A stretch of 51,098 bases of DNA. Source: Marinifilum caeruleilacunae. GTDB lineage: Bacteria; Bacteroidota; Bacteroidia; Bacteroidales; Marinifilaceae. A program made the translations under genes and the position numbers. Of the stretch, positions 9,347 to 34,668 are shown one piece after another. The first letter of the stretch is position 1; the number at the start of each line of letters is the position of its first letter. Under the pieces are notes generated by a model that was given only the letters and a program-made list of their open reading frames with translations, was not told the DNA's origin and did no database searches. Location of the stretch: contig NZ_RZNH01000039.1 of NCBI RefSeq assembly GCF_013141825.1, positions 1 through 51,098 on the forward strand, in the 5' to 3' direction.

Positions 9347-11899
9347 TTAGAATTTAACTTTTAAACCTGTTGACCAATTTCTTCCAAATCCGTAGTAAAC
9401 CAAAGCATCGCTTGATACGTGAGTAGTACCATCTTGAGCTTTTGAGATGTATTCAGTATCGAATACGTTGTTCATGTTACCATAGATAGAAGCTTTTAAA
9501 CCAGCAATTTCAAATCTGTAGTTGAAACCCAGGTCAACCAAACCAACATCTGGCATTTCCCAAGCATCACCAGGAACAGAGTTCAAACCACGCTTTGTAG
9601 CATCAAAGTTAGCATAGTGCTTGCCATAGTACAAGTAGTCTCCGCTAATTGTAAGCTTAGGCAATACTTCATATCTAACTGAAACAGATCCTGTCATTTG
9701 AGCAGAGTTACCAACGTGAACATCTTTAATGATTGCATTAAATTCACCTTCTAATTCATTAGTTTCCTCATTAAATACAGCAGCATTTACATCATCTTCG
9801 TAAATCCAGTCTCCTAGAGAGAACATTGCATCAATAGTTAACTTCTTAGATGGCTTGTAGCTAGCTTCAAACTCAATACCTTGGTGCAATTGGTTCAATC
9901 CACTGATATTAACTTTACTTCTACCAATTGTCTGAACTAATCCTCTGTCTTTCCACTGAGTTCTATACAATGTAACTTTTGCATCGAAATTAGAAGCAGT
10001 GTATTTGTAACCAAGCTCCGAAGTAATGATTTTTTCGTACTTCACATCGTCGTTCACATCATTCTTATAGTTCAAGAATACATTTGTGAAATATGGAGTT
10101 CTTTGTACGTAACCAGCGTTACCAAATACAGAGTGAATAGAGTTGAACTTATAGCTAACACCAGCTTTTACGTTCCATGGGAAGAAGTGCTCCCAGTCAG
10201 TTTCCTGTTCTGCAGGTGCATACTGGAAGTAATCAACACGCTTGTATGATTTTCTTGAAAGAGCAGCAGATACGAAACCTGTTACATTGTCACCAGCATA
10301 TTCTGCCTGACCGAAAAGACCAGTATACAATACTTTACCGTCATTGTGGTAAGAGTACTTGTCACCTTTTTTCAACCAAGTGTCAGCATCACGATTAATA
10401 TTTGAATCATCAAGGAAGAATTTACCACCTAAAAGATCTTCTACTTCTCTGTAGTGCTCACCTTTGTAATATCTTAAATCAAGACCACCAGTATAAGTAA
10501 TTGCTTGTTTAGTCATTGTTAATGAAGACAACAAACCAATCCATGAGTGGTTGTTTACCGAGTTACCAATAATTGCCTGAGATCCTTCAGCAGTATAAGT
10601 AGCATTTCTTGCAGAAACTTCATCAAAATCTAGCAAACCATCAGCAGTTCTTAGAATATTAGGATCATCTTCACCTGTTTTACTATCTACTCTTAACCAA
10701 CCTGATTGTTCACCTGATACACGACGACCTCCACCAGAACCAACAGAAGCATATACCGAAGTTGTCATCAAAGTTTCTTCGTTAATGTTCCAGTAGTGGT
10801 TCAACTGAGCCTGTGGCTTATGGTAGTAGTTGTAACCATATCCACCACCGTAAACTTTACCTTCACGGATACCGTAGTCAGAGTTGTATTTCTCTTCGTG
10901 CTTGTGGTTTCTGTACTGCTCAATTGTATGTTTTGTTCCACGCTGGTTGTGCCATTGTGGAGCACCAGTAATCATGAAAGACATGGTGTGCTTATCGTTG
11001 ATCTTTTTAGATACATTCGCATAGTAAGACCAAGCATCATAATCAGTACCTCTGATATAACCATCAGCATAAGTATGAGAACCTAATAAAGTAACAGCCC
11101 AACCATTATCCATCATACCTGTTGAGATAGAGAACAATTGTTTTCTGTAACCATCGTTACCAATACCAGTTTTTACAACACCACCTTTTTTAGCATCGGT
11201 AGATTTTGTAAGGATATTGATTGTACCACCAACTGAAGAAAGACCTAATTTAGAAGCACCTAAACCACGCTGAACCTGCATTGTTCTTGATACATCAGAA
11301 AGACCTGCCCAGTTTGACCAGTATACTTTACCATTTTCCATATCGTTAACAGGAATACCGTTAATCAATACTCCAACGTTGTTTGAGTCGAAACCACGAA
11401 CGTAAACAGAAGCATCACCGAATCCACCACCTTCTTTCGAAGTATAGATAGATGGAGTAGTTTTCAAAATCTCTGGATACTCTTGAGATCCCAATTTGTT
11501 CTCAATGATGTCAGCGCTAATTGTAGAAACAGCTACTGGTGTTTGACGGTCGGTTACAACCGATGCCATAACACTTACTTCATTCAAACCAACAGCATCA
11601 GATTCCAGCTTAATCTCACCTAAATCCTGAGCTCCTGATAAAGCGATTTCCTTGTCTAGGAAACCAACAAAACTTACAACAACTTTTGATGCTCCCTGAG
11701 GCACTTGCAAAGCAAATGAGCCATCAAAACCTGAAACTGTACCCGAAGTTGTTCCTGGTACAACAATTGAAGCTCCTGGTAAACTCTCACCAGAACCTCC
11801 GTCTACGACCACACCTTTTACGGTGGTTTGAGCAATAGCTGCAACGGACAGCATTAACACAGCCGCCATTGTCAAAATACTTCTCATAGCATTTTTCAT
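9347..11899 (-). CDS. TonB-dependent outer-membrane receptor
   Basis: An 850-residue protein with a signal peptide (ILTMAAVLMLSVAAIAQ). Residues ~25-95 are a carboxypeptidase-regulatory-like beta-sandwich (VKGVVVDGGSGESLPGASI). The plug follows (VRGFDSNNVGVLINGIPVND, GASKLGLSSVGGTINILTK), then a 22-strand barrel ending in the terminal aromatic pattern RNWSTGLKVKF. At 850 residues it is shorter than typical SusC proteins and has no SusD-like neighbour, so it looks more like an iron-chelate or small-ligand receptor than a glycan importer. The ligand cannot be read from the sequence. It is first in an operon with the repeat lipoprotein. Confidence 0.93.
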   Translation of the reverse strand: MKNAMRSILTMAAVLMLSVAAIAQTTVKGVVVDGGSGESLPGASIVVPGTTSGTVSGFDGSFALQVPQGASKVVVSFVGFLDKEIALSGAQDLGEIKLESDAVGLNEVSVMASVVTDRQTPVAVSTISADIIENKLGSQEYPEILKTTPSIYTSKEGGGFGDASVYVRGFDSNNVGVLINGIPVNDMENGKVYWSNWAGLSDVSRTMQVQRGLGASKLGLSSVGGTINILTKSTDAKKGGVVKTGIGNDGYRKQLFSISTGMMDNGWAVTLLGSHTYADGYIRGTDYDAWSYYANVSKKINDKHTMSFMITGAPQWHNQRGTKHTIEQYRNHKHEEKYNSDYGIREGKVYGGGYGYNYYHKPQAQLNHYWNINEETLMTTSVYASVGSGGGRRVSGEQSGWLRVDSKTGEDDPNILRTADGLLDFDEVSARNATYTAEGSQAIIGNSVNNHSWIGLLSSLTMTKQAITYTGGLDLRYYKGEHYREVEDLLGGKFFLDDSNINRDADTWLKKGDKYSYHNDGKVLYTGLFGQAEYAGDNVTGFVSAALSRKSYKRVDYFQYAPAEQETDWEHFFPWNVKAGVSYKFNSIHSVFGNAGYVQRTPYFTNVFLNYKNDVNDDVKYEKIITSELGYKYTASNFDAKVTLYRTQWKDRGLVQTIGRSKVNISGLNQLHQGIEFEASYKPSKKLTIDAMFSLGDWIYEDDVNAAVFNEETNELEGEFNAIIKDVHVGNSAQMTGSVSVRYEVLPKLTISGDYLYYGKHYANFDATKRGLNSVPGDAWEMPDVGLVDLGFNYRFEIAGLKASIYGNMNNVFDTEYISKAQDGTTHVSSDALVYYGFGRNWSTGLKVKF

Positions 11900-27388: not shown

Positions 27389-28099
27389 ATGGCTAAATAC
27401 AAAAGAGTACTTTTAAAATTAAGCGGCGAATCGTTAATGGGAGAACAACAATACGGAATCGATTCGCAACGATTAAACGATTATGCAGAGCAAATTAAAG
27501 AAATTACAGAACTTGGCGTCCAGGTAGGTATTGTAATTGGCGGTGGTAACATTTTTCGCGGTTTAAGCGGAGCAGCCAAAGGTTTCGATCGTGTAAAAGG
27601 AGACCAAATGGGAATGATGGCAACCGTTATCAACAGTCTGGCCCTAAATTCTGCCCTGGATGCAATCGGATGTAAATCGAGAGTACTTACAGCCATTAGA
27701 ATGGAACCAATTGGAGAGTTTTATTCGAAACAAAAAGCTGTTGATTACCTGGAAGAAGGTTACGTAACCATTTTCTCGGCAGGAACAGGAAACCCATATT
27801 TCACAACCGACACAGGCTCATCGCTACGAGGTATCGAAATTGAAGCCGATGCCATGCTAAAAGGAACTCGTGTAGATGGTATTTACACTGCAGATCCTGA
27901 GAAAGATCCGACAGCAACCAAATTTGAAAGCATTACTTTCGATGAGATTTACAACAAAAATCTGCGTATTATGGACCTTACAGCCACAACCATGTGTAAA
28001 GAAAATGACTTGAACATTGTTGTATTTGATATGGATACCAAAGGTAACCTAAAGAAAGTAATCGAAGGAGAAAACATTGGAACTGTAGTTCATAATTAA
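27389..28099 (+). CDS. pyrH: UMP kinase
   Basis: A 236-residue protein of the amino acid kinase fold. LLKLSGESLMG is the phosphate-binding N-terminus, VIGGGNIFRG the UMP-binding loop, KGDQMGMMATVINSLAL and FTTDTGSSLRGIEIEADAMLKGT the later signatures. It phosphorylates UMP to UDP in pyrimidine synthesis and is the bacterial hexameric type. The pyrH-frr order is conserved across bacteria. Confidence 0.98.
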   Translation: MAKYKRVLLKLSGESLMGEQQYGIDSQRLNDYAEQIKEITELGVQVGIVIGGGNIFRGLSGAAKGFDRVKGDQMGMMATVINSLALNSALDAIGCKSRVLTAIRMEPIGEFYSKQKAVDYLEEGYVTIFSAGTGNPYFTTDTGSSLRGIEIEADAMLKGTRVDGIYTADPEKDPTATKFESITFDEIYNKNLRIMDLTATTMCKENDLNIVVFDMDTKGNLKKVIEGENIGTVVHN

Positions 28100-28213
28100 G
28101 CTTTTAGCTATTGGCTCTTAGCAAATAAAAATAGTATCTTTAAGAGAAGTTAAATTCGTTTAGCATGTTTTATGGAGCACTATGAGCGAAACACATAAAG
28201 CCAATAGCTAAAA
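28100..28213. repeat. Inverted heptad element in the pyrH-frr gap
   Basis: The left side reads in heptads (GCTTTTA, GCTATTG, GCTCTTA). The arms TTTTAGCTATTGGCT (28102-28116) and its exact complement (28199-28213) form a perfect 15-bp inverted repeat around ~82 bp. It looks like a small non-autonomous palindromic insertion built from the same GCT heptads as the 27301 array. Confidence 0.68.
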
Positions 28214-28218
28214 ATTTA

Positions 28219-28226
28219 TATTTTTG
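28219..28226 (+). promoter_or_regulatory. Candidate -7 box for frr
   Basis: TATTTTTG matches TAnnTTTG directly after the inverted heptad element, 44 bp before the frr ATG. Confidence 0.45.
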
Positions 28227-28270
28227 TAAACACATACATTGATCAATAATTACAATAAAATCTTTCTCCT

Positions 28271-28834
28271 ATGACCGAAGAAGTTCAAATGTATCTGGAT
28301 GATGCAAAGGAAAAGATGGAAGCTGCAGTTGACCATCTTGAAAAAGAGTTACTTAAAATTCGTGCTGGAAAAGCTAGTCCAAGCATGTTAAACGGTGTTA
28401 TGGTAGACTACTATGGTAGTATGACTCCATTGGCACAGGTTGCTAATGTTAGTGTACCAGACCCAAGAACAATTGCTGTTCAGCCTTGGGAAAAAGCGAT
28501 GATTTCTCCTATTGAAAAGGCCATTATGAATGCCAACCTGGGTTTCAACCCTGATAACAACGGTGAAATTATCCGTATCAATATTCCTGCCTTAACAGAG
28601 GAACGCCGTGGCGATTTGGTAAAACAATCGAAAGCAGAATGCGAAAATGCAAAAGTAAGTATTCGTAATGCTCGCCGCGATACCAACGTTGAGTTGAAGA
28701 AATTGATTAAAGAAGGTTTATCTGAAGACCTTGAAAAAGACGCTGAAGCAGAAGTGCAAAATATGACCGACAACTACGGTAAAAAAATTGACGCTATGCT
28801 CTCAGAAAAAGAGAAAGATATTATGACCATATAA
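28271..28834 (+). CDS. frr: Ribosome recycling factor
   Basis: A 187-residue protein of normal length. The three-helix bundle and domain II are recognisable: LLKIRAGKASPSMLNGVMVDYYGSMTPLAQVA, VQPWEKAMISPIEKAI, and the final helix ERRGDLVKQSKAECENAKV...IRNARRD. It splits post-termination ribosomes together with EF-G. The gene is intact, but its last ~80 bp and terminator occur a second time at 29601-29712. Confidence 0.98.
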   Translation: MTEEVQMYLDDAKEKMEAAVDHLEKELLKIRAGKASPSMLNGVMVDYYGSMTPLAQVANVSVPDPRTIAVQPWEKAMISPIEKAIMNANLGFNPDNNGEIIRINIPALTEERRGDLVKQSKAECENAKVSIRNARRDTNVELKKLIKEGLSEDLEKDAEAEVQNMTDNYGKKIDAMLSEKEKDIMTI

Positions 28835-28838
28835 TAGA

Positions 28839-28870
28839 GAAAAAGCTGCCAGTAGGCAGCTTTTTTTTTT
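28839..28870 (+). terminator. Rho-independent terminator after frr
   Basis: AAAGCTGCC pairs with GGCAGCTTT around AGTA, followed by ten T. Confidence 0.88.
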
Positions 28871-28941
28871 GCTTTATATTGGCTTTTATCTTTCCTAAAC
28901 TTAGTTTCCTATCATTGAATAATGGGAAGTAATTCCAACCA

Positions 28942-29274
28942 TTAAATCAGACCTTCTGCTTCTAATGATTTCTTTAAAGAGTAGTAGTTTTCCAACTTCC
29001 TATCCTTTTCTAACTTCTTATGGATTTTCTTCATTTTTACAGGAGTTGAAAGCTCTTCAATGTTTTTAATTTTAATGGTGAGTTCATCCCCATCTTTTAG
29101 CTGCTTACTTAGCCAATAAATATGTTCGTGGTCTTTTGTATTCAAGCCCGAAAAATCAAGGTTTATCGCATCTTCATGCTCGTTTGTTAGCTTGGTAATT
29201 ATTAAAGACAAAACACCATCTTCTATTGAAGCAGAGGTTTTTTCCCCATTTAATTTCAATTCGAATCCAATCAT
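28942..29274 (-). CDS. Hypothetical 110-residue protein
   Basis: A small soluble protein with a beta-rich N-terminal half (FELKLNGEKTSASIEDGVLSLII) and a basic helical C-terminal half (MKKIHKKLEKDRKLENYYSLKKSLEAEG). It has no signal peptide, membrane segment or cysteine. I do not recognise the family. It lies between the two copies of the frr 3' end and on the strand opposite frr, which suggests it arrived with the segment that carries the duplication. Confidence 0.6.
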   Translation of the reverse strand: MIGFELKLNGEKTSASIEDGVLSLIITKLTNEHEDAINLDFSGLNTKDHEHIYWLSKQLKDGDELTIKIKNIEELSTPVKMKKIHKKLEKDRKLENYYSLKKSLEAEGLI

Positions 29275-29303
29275 TTTCTATTATTTATTTTATTATAGTC
29301 TTA

Positions 29304-29573
29304 TCATCTTTTTTTAAAAAACCGATTATAGAGCATGGCAATTAATCCCAGAAAATAGAAAACCAAGCATCCAATCGACAAGTAGGATTTTAAATGAAAT
29401 GCACCTAGAAGCCAAAGAATCAATCCAAACGATAAGTAATGCCAAATTTTTAAATACGTTTCATGCATCTTGTAATCTTTATTAAAAGTAATAAATACTA
29501 TTGGGTTAATAAACTGTACGGAATAAATCCAATTCACAAGCGATATGGACAGAACTGATGCCAGAATCGACAT
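29304..29573 (-). CDS. Small membrane protein of unknown function
   Basis: Read from the ATG at 29573 it has 89 residues with two clear C-terminal membrane segments (LSFGLILWLLGAF and YLSIGCLVFYFLGLIAML) and a basic end (NRFFKKR). The frame is open to 29729, but that part is antisense to the duplicated frr tail. A second ATG at 29468 gives 54 residues. I cannot decide between them; the first choice would translate the 21-nt repeats, which appear non-coding at the other site. No family recognised. Confidence 0.45.
   Translation of the reverse strand: MSILASVLSISLVNWIYSVQFINPIVFITFNKDYKMHETYLKIWHYLSFGLILWLLGAFHLKSYLSIGCLVFYFLGLIAMLYNRFFKKR
29530..29571 (-). repeat. Two 21-nt direct repeat units (GTCGAT-type), site A
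   Basis: On the minus strand GTCGATTCTGG starts at 29571 and GTCCATATCGC starts at 29550, exactly 21 nt apart. The second unit and its flank (ATATCGCTTGTGAAT) match the third unit at 31265-31285. See the three-unit copy at 31265-31327. Confidence 0.6.
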
Positions 29574-29600
29574 TTGTTTAACTTTAGTCCAAAAAAAAAA

Positions 29601-29712
29601 TGCAAAATATGACCGACAACTACGGTAAAAAATTGACGCCATGCTCTCAGAAAAAGAGAAAGATATTATGACCATATAATAGAGGAAAAGCTGCCAGAGG
29701 GCAGCTTTTTTT
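29601..29712 (+). pseudogene. Duplicated 3' end of frr with its terminator
   Basis: This stretch repeats 28755-28867: the last ~27 codons of frr, the stop and the hairpin terminator. I count about five differences over 106 bp, including one A lost from a run of seven that shifts the frame. The hairpin is still complete (GCTGCC-AGAG-GGCAGC, then seven T). The copy starts abruptly at TGCAAAATATG after a run of ten A, so the left junction is visible. It cannot encode a functional factor. Confidence 0.9.
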
Positions 29713-29741
29713 ATTAATAAAAATGGCATTAGGATATTTAC

Positions 29742-29939
29742 TTACTGTCTTTCTAGACTTTTCTTTTGTTCTCTTGAGAACAATACAATCAATCCAACAA
29801 TATCAAAGGCAGATCCTATAGAAATTAAAATTTTATAGTGTATATTTTCTGGAGCAATAACCATTATAGCTGAAATTTTCAACAGGAAACCTATCAGAAA
29901 TAAAGTAATTATTAGACGATAGTTAAACAAGTATTTCAT
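29742..29939 (-). CDS. Small two-helix membrane protein
   Basis: A 65-residue protein reading MKYLFNYRLIITLFLIGFLL, then a second segment (ILISIGSAFDIVGLIVLF) and a charged end (SREQKKSLERQ). It has two membrane segments and no motif I recognise. The open frame runs 13 codons further upstream. It could be an immunity-type or accessory membrane protein of the neighbouring lipoprotein gene, but this is inference from position only. Confidence 0.5.
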   Translation of the reverse strand: MKYLFNYRLIITLFLIGFLLKISAIMVIAPENIHYKILISIGSAFDIVGLIVLFSREQKKSLERQ

Positions 29940-29952
29940 AATATGTAGATTT

Positions 29953-30063
29953 TTATAAACAAGAGACTGCACAAGCAAAATAAACAGCTGCAGCAGCCCC
30001 CTTCTCTCCTAATTATTTTTTCTGAAGACAAGACAACACCAAAGTACAAGGAATACTGGTCAT
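29953..30063 (-). pseudogene. Possible decayed small gene with an Ala/Cys-rich tail
   Basis: From an ATG at 30063 the minus strand reads MTSIPCTLVLSCLQKK, a TAA stop, then in the same frame LGEKGAAAAVYFACAVSCL and a stop at 29953. The Ala/Cys-rich end resembles in composition the tail of the lipoprotein at 30515-31213. It may be the 3' remnant of a related gene. Chance is possible with so short a stretch. Confidence 0.3.
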
Positions 30064-30075
30064 AAAAATGGTTTT

Positions 30076-30222
30076 CTACTTTAGTTTATCTTTTAACTCA
30101 AAATATATCAAACCAAAAATAAGACCACAACAATGAGAGAGTATGCATATTTGCAATTTGAAATCGTCTTTTCAATACCACTGTACAAATTGTATGAAGA
30201 AATTAAAACCATTACACGACTT
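30076..30222 (-). pseudogene. Frameshifted remnant resembling the C-terminal half of a rhomboid-type membrane protein
   Basis: One minus-strand frame reads RVMVLISSYNLYSGIEKTISN, and after a one-frame shift another reads LQICILSHCCGLIFGLIYF followed by ELKDKLK and a stop at 30076. Together they recall the N-L-x-x-G ... H-x-x-G-L-x-x-G-L region of rhomboid proteins. No upstream half was found. The call rests on a short, frameshifted match. Confidence 0.28.
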
Positions 30223-30279
30223 ATTCAAATAGCGTAGGTATCTTGCATTGTTTGATTTATTCTATCTCCTGACTAAAGC

Positions 30280-30504
30280 TTAATCCAAATAGATTTTTTT
30301 TAGATATGTAAGACCTGTAAAGGGTATGAAACATTTAAAAAAATCTTTCCAACTCATTTTTAAAAACCTTAATCTTATAACTAATATTATTATCAAATAA
30401 GGAACAATAAAGTAGAGCATTGTATATACAGGAATAATCCCTGCAAACATATTTATTAATACGAATGGCAATACTGTTAAAATGATAAAAAGGTAATTGT
30501 TCAT
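30280..30504 (-). CDS. Small hydrophobic membrane protein
   Basis: A 74-residue protein with two or three membrane segments (YLFIILTVLPFVLINMF, YTMLYFIVPYLIIILVI) and a basic C-terminus (WKDFFKCFIPFTGLTYLKKIY). It starts 10 bp after the stop of the lipoprotein gene and is probably in the same transcript. The size and topology suit a small immunity or partner protein, but no family is recognised. Confidence 0.5.
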   Translation of the reverse strand: MNNYLFIILTVLPFVLINMFAGIIPVYTMLYFIVPYLIIILVIRLRFLKMSWKDFFKCFIPFTGLTYLKKIYLD

Positions 30505-30514
30505 GATCTTTATT

Positions 30515-31213
30515 TTAATAATTATAAAAAGTTGCTCTTCCAGCACAACCTATACTTGTTCCGATCGCACATGATGGTCCAAATGCAACACAAAACATTG
30601 CCTCAACACTACCAGCAACTGTACCACTAGACATTCTATCCATTGCTCTTCCAATACATTTTCCCCACCTTCCAAACCAACCTTTTGTATTGGACAAATT
30701 CTCAATATCATTAAAAGTTGTCAATGAAAGTATCTCCTCATCTTTTATATGAATTTTAAAAAGGAGGTCATAGTTATCATTATAAATCCCCGTTATAACT
30801 TCCTGATTTGAAATAAATTCTTGTGATATGAAAATACTTTCTTCAGAAATCTTATTATCTGAATTTATTAAAGAGGCAAGTGTATATTTATTTGCAGAAC
30901 TTCCACATCCTTCTACCAAAATTGCTTTTACATCCGAATTGTCATATTCATAAATTGTAGCATCCTCAAAATCCCAAGTTACAATCTCTTCAGTAGATTT
31001 CGTGCTATATTCATTTAATGAAACAAACATACAATTATTCATATCAGCTTTTTGCCTAATTGCTTTTAGCAAAGCATCATTATTTAATTTAAATGAATCA
31101 ACTACTTTATATTCTATCAAAGAATTATCTTCTTTCTTTTCTATTTCAGTTTGACGATCATCACAAGCATAAAACAATGCAAAACAAAAGAGTAATAAAT
31201 TTAACTTTTTCAT
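30515..31213 (-). CDS. Lipoprotein with a Gly/Ala/Cys-rich C-terminal tail
   Basis: A 232-residue protein. The start at 31213 gives a lipoprotein signal (LNLLLFCFALFYAC, Cys at 17). The middle (~residues 25-170) is acidic and beta-rich without a known motif. The last ~55 residues change character: GWFGRWGKCIGRAMDRMSSG, then small and hydrophobic residues with three cysteines (MFCVAFGPSCAIGTSIGCAG). Such a tail resembles bacteriocin-like or membrane-inserting peptides. The function is unknown. The 21-nt repeats at 31265-31327 lie upstream and a small membrane protein gene follows. Confidence 0.62.
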   Translation of the reverse strand: MKKLNLLLFCFALFYACDDRQTEIEKKEDNSLIEYKVVDSFKLNNDALLKAIRQKADMNNCMFVSLNEYSTKSTEEIVTWDFEDATIYEYDNSDVKAILVEGCGSSANKYTLASLINSDNKISEESIFISQEFISNQEVITGIYNDNYDLLFKIHIKDEEILSLTTFNDIENLSNTKGWFGRWGKCIGRAMDRMSSGTVAGSVEAMFCVAFGPSCAIGTSIGCAGRATFYNY

Positions 31214-31264
31214 ATTTCTCGACTTTAATATTATTATTGTTTCATAATTTATATCGTACAATTC

Positions 31265-31327
31265 TGATTCACAAGCGATATCGACAAACGATAGCTGAGC
31301 ATCGACAAAGCTGGTGCTGGCATCGAC
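31265..31327 (-). repeat. Three 21-nt direct repeat units (GTCGAT-type), site B
   Basis: On the minus strand GTCGATG starts at 31327 and 31306 and GTCGATA at 31285, so the period is exactly 21 nt, two helical turns. The array lies 50-115 bp before the lipoprotein ATG. A two-unit version lies at 29530-29571. The layout suits side-by-side binding of a regulator, but the repeats could also be an insertion-linked sequence. Confidence 0.62.
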
Positions 31328-31383
31328 ATGTGAATAGTTTTTTGTTGAAAATGACCGATTGAGCCTGGAAAAAAAATGCACAA

Positions 31384-31413
31384 AAAAAGAGCTACCTATT
31401 GGCAGCTCTTTTT
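31384..31413. terminator. Bidirectional hairpin downstream of the M56 sensor gene
   Basis: AAAAGAGCT pairs with AGCTCTTTT, with inner CC/GG pairs, flanked by A and T runs on both sides. It ends the M56 gene transcript on the minus strand. Its centre (GCTACC-TATT-GGCAGC) resembles the frr terminator (GCTGCC-AGTA-GGCAGC). Confidence 0.65.
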
Positions 31414-31437
31414 AATCTATTTGATCTCTAAATTATT

Positions 31438-32721
31438 CTATTGCAATCTGAATTGAAGTTGAAACTGAAGTTCCTGCCCAATCCATTCCTGCTTGGTCAA
31501 TTGCGGCAAGGCATTTAGAATTCGAAGTGTTTCTTTCTCCAGACTTTTTATCCCTTTCTGCTTATCGGCCAGTTTAGTTCCCGCAGTTTTGTATGAGGTA
31601 ATTACTACCTCTTCAATTTTCACCGCACTCTTTTTCTTTCGTTTTGCAATTACCACATCCTTTACTTTTCCATCGTCACCCACCTTAACAAGAGCAATTA
31701 CTTTTGCTTCTGTGTGGCTCTCTTGCGCTACTAGCGGATATTTCACTCTTCTGGCAATATATTTTTGCAAATCCAATTTACTCGAAATGGTCTTTTCAGC
31801 TTTCTTTTCCATCGAATCCGTAGCTTTTGGCTCTGGATTGGTAAATGCCAACATGCTAAAGGCCAAAATTGGCAGTAGCAGTAAAATTTTAAATCGATCT
31901 ATGGTTCTATGATTATCTAATTTGTTCATCATTATAATTCTTTTTTTAGTTAGACTTTGATTGTAATTATTAACCAAGTGACTTTGTCCCTGCTGTCGCA
32001 CAAGCTGCAGTAAGGAGTATTGATAATCTTTCGGATCGGGCACACTCTTTAGCATGATGTTGTCAACACAAAATTCATGATTATTGGCAATTAAACTTCG
32101 TAACCACCATGCAAAAGGGTTCCACCACTGAAAAATCAGCATGCATTCAACTAAACTAAGGTCAACAGAGTGCCAATCGGCGCAATGGGTTTTTTCGTGC
32201 TCTAAAATCAGTTGCCTGTCTTTACTTTCCTCTAAGTCTTCAGAAATAAATATGGTCCTGAAAAATGAGAACGGCCCCAGATTTGAATCTGGCAAAACAG
32301 CCAACGAAAAGCCTTTATAGGATTTTGATTTAGCTTTCTTTTTCAGACTCCAAATGGACCGATAGCCATATAAAAGCCGAAGCAGGAAAACTAAACTAAT
32401 CAATCCGTACAAAGCAAATCCCAATAGTTCTGCTGAAAAGGAAAATTGATTTACGACCATAGGTGCATCAGAATTGTTTTGGGCTCCAAATACCAGGTTT
32501 TGCACGGGTGCAAATTCGCTTTCGTTCGCAAAGATTAGTTTTTTAACCCATACAGGCATGGCAAGCAATGGCACAATCCATGGCAATAAAAGGCTACCAA
32601 TTAGCCAATACCTGTTGCGTTTGTAAAAATGGTCGTTCGATAATACCAGCACATATAAAAGAACTGATATGGCCAGAACAATTCCACCTTTAATTTGATA
32701 TTCCCAAAACATTTCGATCAT
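31438..32721 (-). CDS. BlaR1/MecR1-type M56 metallopeptidase with a TonB-like C-terminal domain
   Basis: A 427-residue membrane protein. Three N-terminal membrane segments (about 12-30, 38-58, 98-118) precede the zinc site H175-E176-K-T-H179 (LILEHEKTHCADWH), and another segment lies at about 278-293 (FKILLLLPILAFSMLAF). The C-terminus (RRVKYPLVAQESHTEAKV...VGDDGKVKDVVI) resembles a TonB C-terminal domain rather than the penicillin-binding sensor of BlaR1. It starts 3 bp after the BlaI-type gene and should release that repressor by proteolysis after a periplasmic signal. The signal is unknown. Confidence 0.9.
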   Translation of the reverse strand: MIEMFWEYQIKGGIVLAISVLLYVLVLSNDHFYKRNRYWLIGSLLLPWIVPLLAMPVWVKKLIFANESEFAPVQNLVFGAQNNSDAPMVVNQFSFSAELLGFALYGLISLVFLLRLLYGYRSIWSLKKKAKSKSYKGFSLAVLPDSNLGPFSFFRTIFISEDLEESKDRQLILEHEKTHCADWHSVDLSLVECMLIFQWWNPFAWWLRSLIANNHEFCVDNIMLKSVPDPKDYQYSLLQLVRQQGQSHLVNNYNQSLTKKRIIMMNKLDNHRTIDRFKILLLLPILAFSMLAFTNPEPKATDSMEKKAEKTISSKLDLQKYIARRVKYPLVAQESHTEAKVIALVKVGDDGKVKDVVIAKRKKKSAVKIEEVVITSYKTAGTKLADKQKGIKSLEKETLRILNALPQLTKQEWIGQELQFQLQFRLQ

Positions 32722-32724
32722 AGC

Positions 32725-33099
32725 TTACTCTTTATCTTCTTTTTTTTCAATCAGATCAATGAGCTCCTTAAGGTCATCAACATTTAGTTTTTCTTCCTTT
32801 ACAAAGTAGGAAACCACACTTTTGTAGGAAGACTCAAAATAGTCCGATACCACATTTTTAATGAATAACTTCCGATATTCCTCTCTAGTGATCACGGGAT
32901 AATATTCGTGTGTATTCCCATAGGAGTTGTGCGCTACAAATCCTTTTTCCTCTAATCCGCGAATTAGGGTGCTAAAAGTATTGTAATGTGGCCTTGGTTC
33001 CGGATGCTCTTTCAATAAGTCCTTTACGAAACCCTTACCGGCATTCCACAATATTTTCATCACATCCTCTTCCCGTTTCGTTAGTCGTTTTGTATGCAT
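32725..33099 (-). CDS. BlaI/MecI-family transcriptional repressor
   Basis: A 124-residue winged-helix protein: KRLTKREEDVMKILWNAGKGFVKDLL is the family N-terminus, then HYNTFSTLIRGLEEKGFVAH and YYPVITREEYRKLF, with a C-terminal dimerisation helix. The start at 33099 gives the usual length. An in-frame ATG at 33123 is possible, but the TTG at 33138 lies upstream of the predicted transcript start. It forms an operon with the M56 sensor. The promoter is covered by four tandem candidate operators, so it should be autorepressed. Confidence 0.93.
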   Translation of the reverse strand: MHTKRLTKREEDVMKILWNAGKGFVKDLLKEHPEPRPHYNTFSTLIRGLEEKGFVAHNSYGNTHEYYPVITREEYRKLFIKNVVSDYFESSYKSVVSYFVKEEKLNVDDLKELIDLIEKKEDKE

Positions 33100-33140
33100 T
33101 ACATTGCCTTTTTTATTTACCATGAATCTAGTTGACAAAT

Positions 33141-33170
33141 CAAATATAACTATTTTTTTCGTTCGGCCAA
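33141..33170 (-). promoter_or_regulatory. Promoter of the BlaI/M56 operon
   Basis: On the minus strand TTG at 33170-33168, a 19-nt spacer and TATATTTG at 33148-33141 match the Bacteroidota consensus. The transcript should start about 33134. Confidence 0.7.
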
Positions 33171-33224
33171 CTATTTTTCTCGTTGCTTAACTATTTTTCT
33201 CGTTGTTCAACGAATTTTCTCGTT
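33148..33224. promoter_or_regulatory. Four tandem operator-like sites over the BlaI/M56 promoter
   Basis: Four 16-bp units start at 33148, 33169, 33189 and 33209. Each has the form AAC-N10-GTT with a shared T-rich centre (AACTATTTTTCTCGTT is present twice exactly). Spacing is 21, 20 and 20 bp, so all units lie on one face of the helix. The first fills the spacer between the -33 and -7 boxes and the second overlaps the -33 TTG. They are the natural candidates for BlaI-type repressor binding. Confidence 0.68.
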
Positions 33225-33273
33225 ACAATAGATATATCCCCTCTAAATCAGAAACATTCACTACCTAAAAAAC

Positions 33274-33308
33274 AAAAAGTCCAAGAGATCTCTCCCTCAG
33301 ACTTTTTA
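33274..33308 (-). terminator. Rho-independent terminator for the BtpA-like gene
   Basis: AAAAAGTC pairs with GACTTTTT with an inner AGAGATCTCT palindrome. On the minus strand a T-rich tract follows. Confidence 0.68.
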
Positions 33309-33331
33309 TCATATCATCAAGTGCTATGGAT

Positions 33332-34120
33332 TTACTTTCTTAAGTGCTTCACCTGTTCCATAAACAATTTGAGTCGTTCTTCAGATATCGGATTCTTCCA
33401 AAATCCATCTTCCTTAAAATGCGAACCTACTATAAATCCCGAAGCATATTCCCAATATTCAGCCAGGTTATCAGCGGTAACGCCCGATCCTATTAAAACA
33501 GGTAAGTTTACTTTGTCCTTTAAACTTTTCAGTTCGTGCAAATATACCGCCTTGCCGGTAGAAGAGCCCGTTACAATTACACCATCGCTCAAAAAGAATT
33601 CTGCTGCCTTTGCTGTCTCGTCAATATCCACATCGGAAGTAATGGCATGCGAACTGTGTTTCTTTTTAATATCAGTATAAATTTTAACCTCTTCGGCCCC
33701 TATTGCCTTACGGTAACGCAATAATTCACCTGCGCACGAGTCAATGTAGCCCTCATCAGCTACATGACCAAATACGAATCCTTCGGCCCTGATAAATTGA
33801 AAATTTGCCGCTTTTGCCACAGCCAGGGCTTCTTTGTTTGCTCCGGCAAGAATTTGTATCCCCAATGGCAAATCAACCGCTTCACGAATGGCTTTAGCCA
33901 CCACAGCCATACTTGCAGTAATTTCGGGTCCAACCGCTCCTTTTAAATAAGGAACATCGTGCATGTTCTCAATCATGATGGCATCAAGGCCTGCTTGGGC
34001 ATAAGTTTTGGCTTCCTGCACTGCCATATCACAAATTTCACTAATATCGTGCTTGCTATTTGGTGTTCCGGGCAAGGCTTGCACATGCACCATGCCGATG
34101 ATGGATTTATTTAGACTCAT
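33332..34120 (-). CDS. BtpA/SgcQ-family protein
   Basis: A 262-residue TIM-barrel-like protein. IIGMVHVQALPGTPNS is the family N-terminus, and AGLDAIMIENMHDVPYLK, GIQILAGANKEALAVA, FIRAEGFVFGHVADEG and LIGSGVTADNLAEY are its later blocks. The family includes BtpA (photosystem I biogenesis in cyanobacteria) and SgcQ of enteric bacteria; in Bacteroidota its role is not established, probably a sugar-related enzyme. The start at 34120 is chosen because the frame upstream runs into heptad repeats. Confidence 0.88.
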   Translation of the reverse strand: MSLNKSIIGMVHVQALPGTPNSKHDISEICDMAVQEAKTYAQAGLDAIMIENMHDVPYLKGAVGPEITASMAVVAKAIREAVDLPLGIQILAGANKEALAVAKAANFQFIRAEGFVFGHVADEGYIDSCAGELLRYRKAIGAEEVKIYTDIKKKHSSHAITSDVDIDETAKAAEFFLSDGVIVTGSSTGKAVYLHELKSLKDKVNLPVLIGSGVTADNLAEYWEYASGFIVGSHFKEDGFWKNPISEERLKLFMEQVKHLRK

Positions 34121-34132
34121 AATATTAAATTT

Positions 34133-34160
34133 AGCTTCAAGCCTCAAGTTACAAGTTTCA
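34133..34160 (-). repeat. Heptad array, left flank of the S23/IVP element
   Basis: Four consecutive 7-mers (AGCTTCA, AGCCTCA, AGTTACA, AGTTTCA on the plus strand) lie immediately upstream of the BtpA-like ATG. Read on the other strand they match the TTGAAGC-type array at 34693-34720, so the two arrays are in inverted orientation. Confidence 0.68.
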
Positions 34161-34201
34161 AGAACATGCTTGCAACGCTTGTGCAACTAATATCTGGCTT
34201 A

Positions 34202-34270
34202 TTATTTCAATTTACCAATCAATGCCTGAAGCATTTTTTGAACTTCACTGGTTTGATCAGTTATATGCAT
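34202..34270 (-). pseudogene. Remnant of a second S23/IVP four-helix-bundle gene
   Basis: The minus strand from 34270 reads MHITDQTSEVQKMLQALIGK, then LK and a stop. The end EVQKMLQALIGKLK matches the end of the intact neighbour (EVQKMLQSLIKKLY) at 11 of 14 positions. Only the C-terminal ~20 residues are visible, so this is a 3' remnant left after duplication, replacement or deletion. Confidence 0.7.
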
Positions 34271-34320
34271 TTTTAAAGCTGTCAACATACAGCCCACAGC
34301 TATTTCAAAGATCTTTTCTA

Positions 34321-34668
34321 TTAATAGAGTTTCTTTATTAAAGATTGTAACATTTTCTGTACTTCAAGAACAAGTTCTATAATGCCATCTACTTCTTTAT
34401 CAGATAACTTTAAGTCTTTCACCAACAACAATTGCGTTTCCAATTCAAAGGAAGAACCGAGAGCAATTTCGAGGAATCTTTTAAAATCTTTATCAGTTGA
34501 TCTGCTACTTCCTTCGGCAATATTACTTGGGATAGAAATTGCAGATCTTGTGATTTGACTTTTTAATCCGTACTTCTCTTCTTTAGGCAAAACGTTTACC
34601 AGTGAATAAACATTTTTCACCAAAATCATACTTTTTTGCCAAACCGTTAATTTCTTAAAATTCTTCAT
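34321..34668 (-). CDS. Four-helix-bundle protein (S23 ribosomal / 23S rRNA intervening-sequence protein family)
   Basis: A 115-residue protein: KLTVWQKSMILVKNVYSL, PKEEKYGLKSQITRSAISIPSNIAEGSSR and FLEIALGSSFELETQLLL are the standard blocks of the family first described in 23S rRNA intervening sequences and related to the Avd protein of diversity-generating retroelements. Here it is free-standing. The role of free-standing members is unknown. It lies with a remnant of a sibling between inverted heptad arrays. Confidence 0.93.
   Translation of the reverse strand: MKNFKKLTVWQKSMILVKNVYSLVNVLPKEEKYGLKSQITRSAISIPSNIAEGSSRSTDKDFKRFLEIALGSSFELETQLLLVKDLKLSDKEVDGIIELVLEVQKMLQSLIKKLY

What the first reader, a model, noticed from the sequence alone, without database searches (positions are those of the whole stretch)
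28755..29712. Duplicated frr 3' end and terminator bracket a foreign-looking segment
The last ~27 codons of frr with stop and terminator (28755-28867) recur at 29601-29712 with about five differences over 106 bp, one of them a frameshift. Between the copies lie about 730 bp with genes on the opposite strand that look unlike the translation cluster. Integration at the 3' end of a conserved gene typically leaves such a copy (an att-like direct repeat), so this may be the scar of a small element using frr as its target. No integrase is visible, so unequal recombination remains possible.
Basis: partly seen in the sequence, partly recalled or inferred. Interest (0 to 1): 0.75.

Follow-up and report, generated by a model that had tools for sequence, protein, structure and literature searches.

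The report
Gene-insertion scar behind frr
A small piece of foreign-looking DNA was added just behind an essential ribosome gene and left a second copy of that gene's end; related bacteria show the place is a repeated landing spot, and the scars fit one-sided recombination better than a dedicated integrase.

Summary
The repeat is real: 28752-28870 recurs at 29598-29715 (94%; 6 substitutions and one frameshifting 1-base gap); the genome holds no third copy at E <= 0.001. The host is a Marinifilum (Bacteroidota). The distal copy plus the gene after it is collinear with the intact frr-tail/gene junction of M. breve, so 28871-29597 (two small minus-strand genes, 30.8% GC) plus one extra tail was inserted. 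Relatives show empty sites: frr abuts M56-BlaI in M. flexuosum and M. fragile, and btpA in seven others. The spot is a turnover hotspot; partial gene ends beside cargo occur at frr in four more relatives, and the same architecture brackets dinD behind polA in M. flexuosum. In four of four informative cases the repeat stops at or within about 16 bp of the terminator T-tract, while its start inside the gene varies. No tyrosine recombinase lies on the contig. This argues against a fixed att site and favours homologous joining in the shared gene tail with illegitimate joining at the other end: a new example of insertion with long target duplication at an integrase-less hotspot. The donor was not seen; the mechanism is inferred.

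The parts
28271..28834 (+). frr (ribosome recycling factor), intact, 187 aa
   Evidence: ORF; Pfam RRF; a match in 58 of 58 genomes searched, own included
28752..28870 (+). proximal repeat copy: last 83 nt of frr with the stop codon, plus the terminator
   Evidence: 94% identical to 29598-29715 over 119 columns
28840..28870 (+). terminator hairpin and T-tract; similarity of the two copies ends here
   Evidence: sequence and comparison of both right ends
28871..29597 (.). inserted segment between the copies, 30.8% GC
   Evidence: no X1 or X2 match behind frr in the 19 loci plus L039 laid out; the distal junction is the older one; GC
28942..29274 (-). X1, 110-aa protein of unknown function
   Evidence: ORF; relatives in 4 of 57 family genomes including this one, none in the five other Marinifilum of that search
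29304..29573 (-). X2, 89-aa protein, membrane-like (hydrophobic by eye; no predictor run); its start codon lies 24 bp from the junction
   Evidence: translation; found in 1 of 57 family genomes, this one
29598..29715 (+). distal repeat copy: frameshifted frr tail plus terminator
   Evidence: with what follows it is collinear with the frr tail and X3 of M. breve (29598-29995 to L046 10482-10887)
29742..29978 (-). X3, 78-aa ORF, membrane-like by eye; counterpart of the gene directly behind frr in M. breve (63% over 52 aa)
30280..31381 (-). X4 (88 aa) and X5 (288-aa ORF, lipoprotein-like from an inner start, by eye), further accessory ORFs
   Evidence: ORFs; no Pfam or PADLOC match
31382..31413 (.). 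frr-like terminator just before the M56 end; candidate third and oldest trace of an frr/M56 junction
   Evidence: aligns in place with the M. fragile frr-terminator/M56 junction; scores 33-39 against 6 of 10 relatives' frr terminators, but only 26 and 23 against the window's own two; of 88 other hairpin terminators from M. flexuosum one scores 38 and the next 28
31438..33138 (-). M56 peptidase (427 aa) and BlaI-type repressor (137 aa), another occupant of the same junction
   Evidence: Pfam PF05569, PF03965
33332..34186 (-). btpA, the neighbour of frr in relatives with an empty site
   Evidence: Pfam BtpA; synteny

Best explanation
The junction behind frr, where convergent genes meet over a terminator, is a hotspot of gene turnover in Marinifilaceae with no integrase seen. 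Shown: X1-X2 and one extra frr tail were added to an older frr-tail/X3 junction, and comparable scars exist here and behind other genes. Inferred: DNA from a close relative carrying its own frr tail, terminator and X1-X2 paired with the resident frr by homology at one end and was joined illegitimately at the other end, inside the resident frr tail (homology-facilitated illegitimate recombination, or the equivalent single crossover of a circularised fragment). The repeat therefore runs from an arbitrary point in the gene to the point where donor and recipient stop being homologous, the terminator T-tract. The mirror version (tail copy plus X3 arriving, anchored further right) gives the same product and is not excluded. 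A likely reason for seeing duplications rather than deletions is selection: an illegitimate joint inside an essential gene end survives only if an intact copy remains. The cargo's function is unknown; X1-X2 may have been cut off from an upstream promoter by the joint (inferred; no promoter test made).
For: Distal copy plus X3 collinear with the M. breve frr tail plus X3 over 414 columns, 74.6%. Both copies share three substitutions that none of six other Marinifilum frr tails has, so both come from this lineage or a very close donor. Empty sites and different cargo in relatives. Other scars at frr: D737 frr-tail/M56-tail remnant, Labilibaculum MAG11 decayed frr tail after BlaI, Labilibaculum OB13 about 190 bp of btpA end between frr and M56, Ancylomarina L059. 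Elsewhere: M. flexuosum polA/dinD and a 228-aa gene; at polA too the distal copy is the one collinear with an empty relative, D737. Right limit at or within about 16 bp of the T-tract in four of four informative cases (window, polA, 228-aa gene, L059), left limit variable. No tyrosine recombinase on the contig. A ComEC-type gene is present (weak).
Against: No donor with frr-X1-X2 was found. The proximal tail does not look foreign, so the donor would have to be conspecific or nearly so; substitutions do not tell which copy came in. In D737 the last 116 bp of the copy are much more like the gene than the part before them, and that step lies close to where the window's copy begins, which could hint at a fixed site. 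MAG11 and D737 do not show the T-tract limit (decay, or a longer shared stretch). Four cases is a small sample. Natural transformation of Marinifilum is not demonstrated here.
Confidence: 0.6

Rival explanations
1. Site-specific integration: the frr tail is an att core and X1-X2 is a small element mobilised in trans by a recombinase encoded elsewhere in the genome.
For: Direct repeat at a gene 3' end that keeps the gene intact; 14 tyrosine-recombinase matches elsewhere in the genome; in D737 the similarity of copy to gene rises near the position at which the window's copy begins.
Against: Different repeat starts at frr, partial ends of btpA and M56 as well, the same scar behind polA and a 228-aa gene; no tyrosine recombinase on the contig; no recurrent cargo.
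Confidence: 0.12
2. Insertion with long target duplication by a cut-and-fill or template-switch route: foreign DNA was joined at a widely staggered break in frr, with no donor frr involved.
For: Long, variable duplications of the host's own sequence, as described for restriction-modification genes (PMC3031569 passages); both copies look like the host's own.
Against: A staggered break predicts arbitrary limits on both sides, whereas the right limit lies at or within about 16 bp of the T-tract in four of four cases.
Confidence: 0.15
3. Tandem duplication of tail plus downstream genes, followed by loss of one copy of the genes.
For: A real example of the first step exists in relative G010: an 820-bp unit of helicase tail plus a ferritin-like gene in two copies that encode the same protein.
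Against: X3 follows the distal tail at nearly the spacing seen in M. breve, leaving no place for a lost copy of X1-X2; X1 and X2 are absent from the five other Marinifilum searched.
Confidence: 0.07
4. Assembly artefact.
For: The genome is a draft of 202 contigs.
Against: The copies differ in 7 columns, the distal one is joined to DNA collinear with another species, and comparable scars occur in other assemblies.
Confidence: 0.02

Closest known systems
Insertion with long target duplication (Nobusato et al. 2000, Helicobacter pylori; paper not seen, known here from citing passages in PMC1643837, PMC3031569 and PMC4978471)
   Same: Foreign gene(s) flanked by a long direct repeat of variable length that is single in a related empty genome
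   Different: Described as frequently associated with restriction-modification genes; here the cargo is other small genes, and the repeat ends at the terminator of the invaded gene
Homology-facilitated illegitimate recombination (Prudhomme 2002; de Vries and Wackernagel 2002; Meier and Wackernagel 2003; seen only as references and discussion in passages of PMC5361080 and PMC2884548)
   Same: One homologous and one non-homologous joint fits the terminator-side limit and the variable gene-side limit
   Different: Known from laboratory transformation and conjugation; here inferred from natural genomes, with duplication, donor unseen
T6SS effector-immunity arrays of Vibrio cholerae (PMC5361080, passages)
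   Same: A new module lands behind a conserved anchor, older modules are pushed away and a gene 3' end can be left behind
   Different: The anchor there is the upstream part of the module itself; here it is the end of an essential housekeeping gene
HGT hotspots without recognisable mobile elements, flanked by core genes (PMC5635113, abstract and passages)
   Same: Core-gene-flanked spot with different cargo in related genomes

Membership tests
Insertion with long target duplication | Insert flanked by a long direct repeat that is single in an empty relative | tested here: met
Insertion with long target duplication | Duplication length varies between insertions | tested here: met
   83, 119, 187 and 209 bp in the gene copy, terminators included (L059, window, polA, D737)
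Insertion with long target duplication | Cargo is often a restriction-modification system (an association, not a strict requirement) | tested here: not met
   no Pfam match above cut-off and no PADLOC match for X1-X5; M. flexuosum dinD matches PADLOC candidate models only
Homology-facilitated illegitimate recombination | One joint lies at the end of donor-recipient homology | tested here: inconclusive
   right limit at or within about 16 bp of the T-tract in four of four cases, but the donor is unseen
Homology-facilitated illegitimate recombination | The other joint is non-homologous and variable | tested here: inconclusive
   left limits differ between cases; the donor side of the joint is unknown, and D737 shows a step near the window's limit
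Homology-facilitated illegitimate recombination | Arises from uptake or transfer of linear DNA | not testable with these tools
   needs an experiment; a ComEC-type gene is present
Integrase-mediated element at a gene 3' end | Integrase encoded by the element, or at least on the contig | tested here: not met
   0 of 14 PF00589 matches of the genome lie on contig C129; serine recombinases not searched
Integrase-mediated element at a gene 3' end | Constant att core | tested here: not met
   different starts at frr in four genomes; scars behind other genes
Transposon or IS | Short constant target duplication and terminal inverted repeats | tested here: not met
   the repeat is 119 columns long; at the insert ends the inverted-repeat list has only a 12-nt T-run/A-run pair (I21); transposase families not searched
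HGT hotspot without mobile-element genes | Core-gene-flanked spot with different cargo in related genomes | tested here: met
   19 loci behind frr; polA junction in six Marinifilum genomes, one of them a short contig

The most novel reading that the evidence does not exclude
Marinifilaceae capture genes behind housekeeping genes through a recurrent terminator-bounded process: each arrival brings a fresh gene tail and terminator and pushes the old tail outward, so that decaying tails form a datable stack of acquisitions. In the window this would be the intact tail, the 94% copy at 29598 and a bare terminator at 31382.
Probability: 0.2. Interest if true: 0.65.

Novelty: new member of a known kind. 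Interest (0 to 1): 0.45.

Why it matters
Many gene-acquisition hotspots in bacteria lack integrases, and how genes enter them is open (PMC5635113 passages). A scar with one limit at the end of shared sequence and the other arbitrary points to one-sided homologous joining, and stacked tails of different age could give the order of arrivals at one site. The pattern (a duplicated gene tail plus terminator bracketing accessory genes) can be searched for in any set of related genomes.

Tried and rejected
Site-specific att at frr: set aside because of different starts, partial ends of the opposite neighbours, the polA case and no tyrosine recombinase on the contig. Tandem duplication with loss: set aside on the M. 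breve spacing. A reverse-transcribed copy of the frr mRNA end was considered because the repeat ends at the terminator, and dropped because the distal copy carries the older right flank. Domain searches of the window cargo gave nothing above cut-off in Pfam and NCBIfam (X4 was not given to NCBIfam) and nothing in PADLOC; Rfam found nothing in 28000-34500. A profile search for further frr tails found the known copies, L049 only at E = 0.094, and weak matches (E 0.01-0.9) in L045, L046, L048 and L051-L056 that lie far from the frr junction and were not pursued. Which copy is the incomer could not be told from substitutions for frr or polA.

Background and controls. DNA search of 57 family genomes with the window tail: a second tail copy in 2 of 57 (this genome and D737); the other extra rows are short, mostly terminator-only matches. 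Of 80 frr-centred loci 75 could be tested for a copy downstream with their own tail (5 too short): clear copies in L049 and L059; short or inverted matches in L045, L050 and L061, and two extra short ones in L059. D737 (L044) was among the 75, but its contig ends before the copy. Over 82 sources and 1240 ORFs five genes at the frr junction gave partial-end copies (window frr, L049 frr, L059 frr, L033 M56, L050 btpA); the other rows were in L080, L120 and L057 (read as repeats or paralogues), opposite-strand matches (L098, L096, L045, one in the window), short ones (L087, L065) and a 24-nt row in L059. These loci are centred on frr, so the concentration there is partly by design. In 2.0 Mb of sampled chromosome (1537 ORFs) 17 of 70 rows passed the paralogue filter: polA, the 228-aa gene, window frr, the G010 tandem duplication, and 13 rows from four genes in repeat families (G033, G001, G010). 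A further 400 kb of M. flexuosum (319 ORFs) gave none after the filter. The 5'-end control over the same samples gave six filtered rows: two upstream copies at one G033 gene, two other G033 rows, the window tail itself read as part of an ORF, and one beside a tandem paralogue; none in the extra 400 kb. So there is no unexplained 5' case in the Marinifilum samples, but the numbers are too small to claim a 3' bias.

Full report
Observation. The last 83 nt of frr with the stop codon, plus the terminator, recur 846 bp downstream: 28752-28870 and 29598-29715, 119 columns, 94% identical, with a one-base gap that frameshifts the copy. Searching the whole genome with this tail gives only these two places at E <= 0.001. 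Between them are 727 bp with two minus-strand ORFs, 30.8% GC.

Host and relatives. The closest frr loci belong to Marinifilum, then Labilibaculum and Ancylomarina. In 19 loci laid out (L042-L060) frr is followed directly by btpA in seven (L048, L051-L056) and by M56-BlaI within about 110 bp in four (L042, L047, L049, L058); the other eight hold other or additional DNA: L043-L045 carry large genes with a GLPGLI-type neighbour (Porph_ging match for the L045 protein; the 885-aa gene in D737 had no Pfam match), M. breve L046 has an X3-like gene, L050 has M56 at +323, and L057, L059 and L060 have other genes. The spot is a turnover hotspot.

What was inserted. Window 29598-29995 aligns with M. breve 10482-10887, i.e. 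the frr tail, X3 and what follows (414 columns, 74.6%). The distal tail/X3 junction is therefore the older one, and X1-X2 with one additional tail was added. The two tails share three substitutions not found in six other Marinifilum frr tails, so the duplication is recent in this lineage or came from a very close donor. X1 has relatives in 4 of 57 family genomes and X2 in 1 of 57, both counts including this genome. Before M56 lies a terminator resembling those of relatives' frr genes and aligned in place with the M. fragile frr/M56 junction. It scores 33-39 against 6 of 10 relatives' frr terminators, 23-31 against the other four and only 26 and 23 against the window's own two; of 88 other hairpin terminators one reaches 38 and the next 28. 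I read it, with moderate confidence, as a third and oldest trace.

Other scars at frr. In D737 (two contigs that share a 50-base end; adjacency inferred) a remnant of about 208 bp of frr tail and about 55 bp of M56 tail sits between two cargo blocks and matches the empty junction of M. flexuosum. In Labilibaculum MAG11 a decayed frr tail lies between BlaI and a sensor-kinase gene. In Labilibaculum OB13 about 190 bp of the btpA end lie between frr and M56, while btpA itself is intact further on. In Ancylomarina L059 the last 19 nt of frr plus its terminator recur behind an endonuclease I gene.

Elsewhere. M. flexuosum carries polA, dinD, then a copy of the polA tail and terminator (97104-97290 and 98184-98367). 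The distal copy and its flank align with the D737 junction, where no ORF of 80 aa or more lies between polA and the S41 peptidase gene; acetyltransferase genes occupy the place behind polA in three other Marinifilum genomes (two of one kind, one of another), and the sixth genome's contig is too short. A 228-aa gene without a Pfam match shows an older scar around a glycosyltransferase-like gene (below Pfam's cut-off) and a Kdo/WaaP-type kinase gene. Relative G010 has a true tandem duplication of a helicase tail with a ferritin-like gene, a useful contrast.

Limits of the repeat. In the window, polA, the 228-aa gene and L059 the similarity of the two copies stops at the T-tract of the terminator or, at polA, about 16 bp past it in a weak gapped stretch, whereas the start inside the gene differs. 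At frr alone the starts lie 83, about 176, about 104 and 19 nt before the end of the stop codon (window, D737, MAG11, L059). An att core predicts two fixed limits; a staggered break predicts two arbitrary limits; one-sided homology with an illegitimate second joint predicts one limit at the end of shared sequence and one arbitrary limit, which is what is seen. The sample is small, and MAG11 and D737 do not show the T-tract limit. One result leans the other way: in D737 the last 116 bp of the copy are far more similar to the gene than the part before them, and that step is close to where the window's copy begins.

Integrase and uptake. None of 14 tyrosine-recombinase matches in the genome lies on this contig; serine recombinases and transposases were not searched for. 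A ComEC-type gene is present, weak evidence because the same search rings in 10 of 14 control genomes.

Comparison with what is known. 'Insertion with long target duplication' was described in Helicobacter pylori by Nobusato et al. 2000; I saw it only through passages of PMC1643837, PMC3031569 and PMC4978471. Homology-facilitated illegitimate recombination is discussed in passages of PMC5361080 and PMC2884548, and hotspots without mobile elements in the abstract and passages of PMC5635113. Searches for frr with genomic island and integration site and for target duplication with transcription terminator, illegitimate recombination and gene insertion gave no paper; seven papers mention Marinifilum and horizontal gene transfer, of which I saw only the listing. 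The finding is a new member of this known kind; the terminator-side limit and the stacked tails are what it may add, as far as those searches and passages show.

Status of the steps. Shown: repeat, insertion, hotspot, several partial-end scars, other genes affected. Inferred: one homologous and one illegitimate joint, a near-conspecific donor, selection for duplications at essential gene ends, and the third trace. Unknown: cargo function.

Noticed in passing
L163:2104-3367 (M. flexuosum, G001:C1:97104-98367): polA is followed by dinD and a second copy of the polA tail and terminator; the place behind polA holds acetyltransferase genes in three other Marinifilum genomes and no such gene in D737.
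   Followed up: partly
L183:15862-18543 (M. flexuosum): A 228-aa gene has a decayed tail copy behind a glycosyltransferase-like gene and a Kdo/WaaP-type kinase gene.
   Followed up: partly
L262:4492-6455 (G010): Tandem duplication of a DEAD-helicase tail plus a ferritin-like gene (820-bp unit); the two ferritin-like ORFs encode the same protein.
   Followed up: partly
L152, L153: Relatives of X1 lie near small Cys-rich ORFs; in L153 two X1 paralogues are in tandem. X1 may belong to small peptide/partner modules (by eye).
   Followed up: no
window 30515-31381: The 288-aa ORF has an inner lipoprotein-like start and a Cys/Gly-rich C-terminus (by eye), with no Pfam, NCBIfam or PADLOC match; M. breve has a 184-aa ORF in a comparable place.
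   Followed up: no
window 31438-32721: M56 here is about 69% identical to that of four other Marinifilum loci, close to its identity with two Labilibaculum loci (66-67%), while frr is 97-98% within Marinifilum; this suggests horizontal exchange of the M56-BlaI pair.
   Followed up: partly
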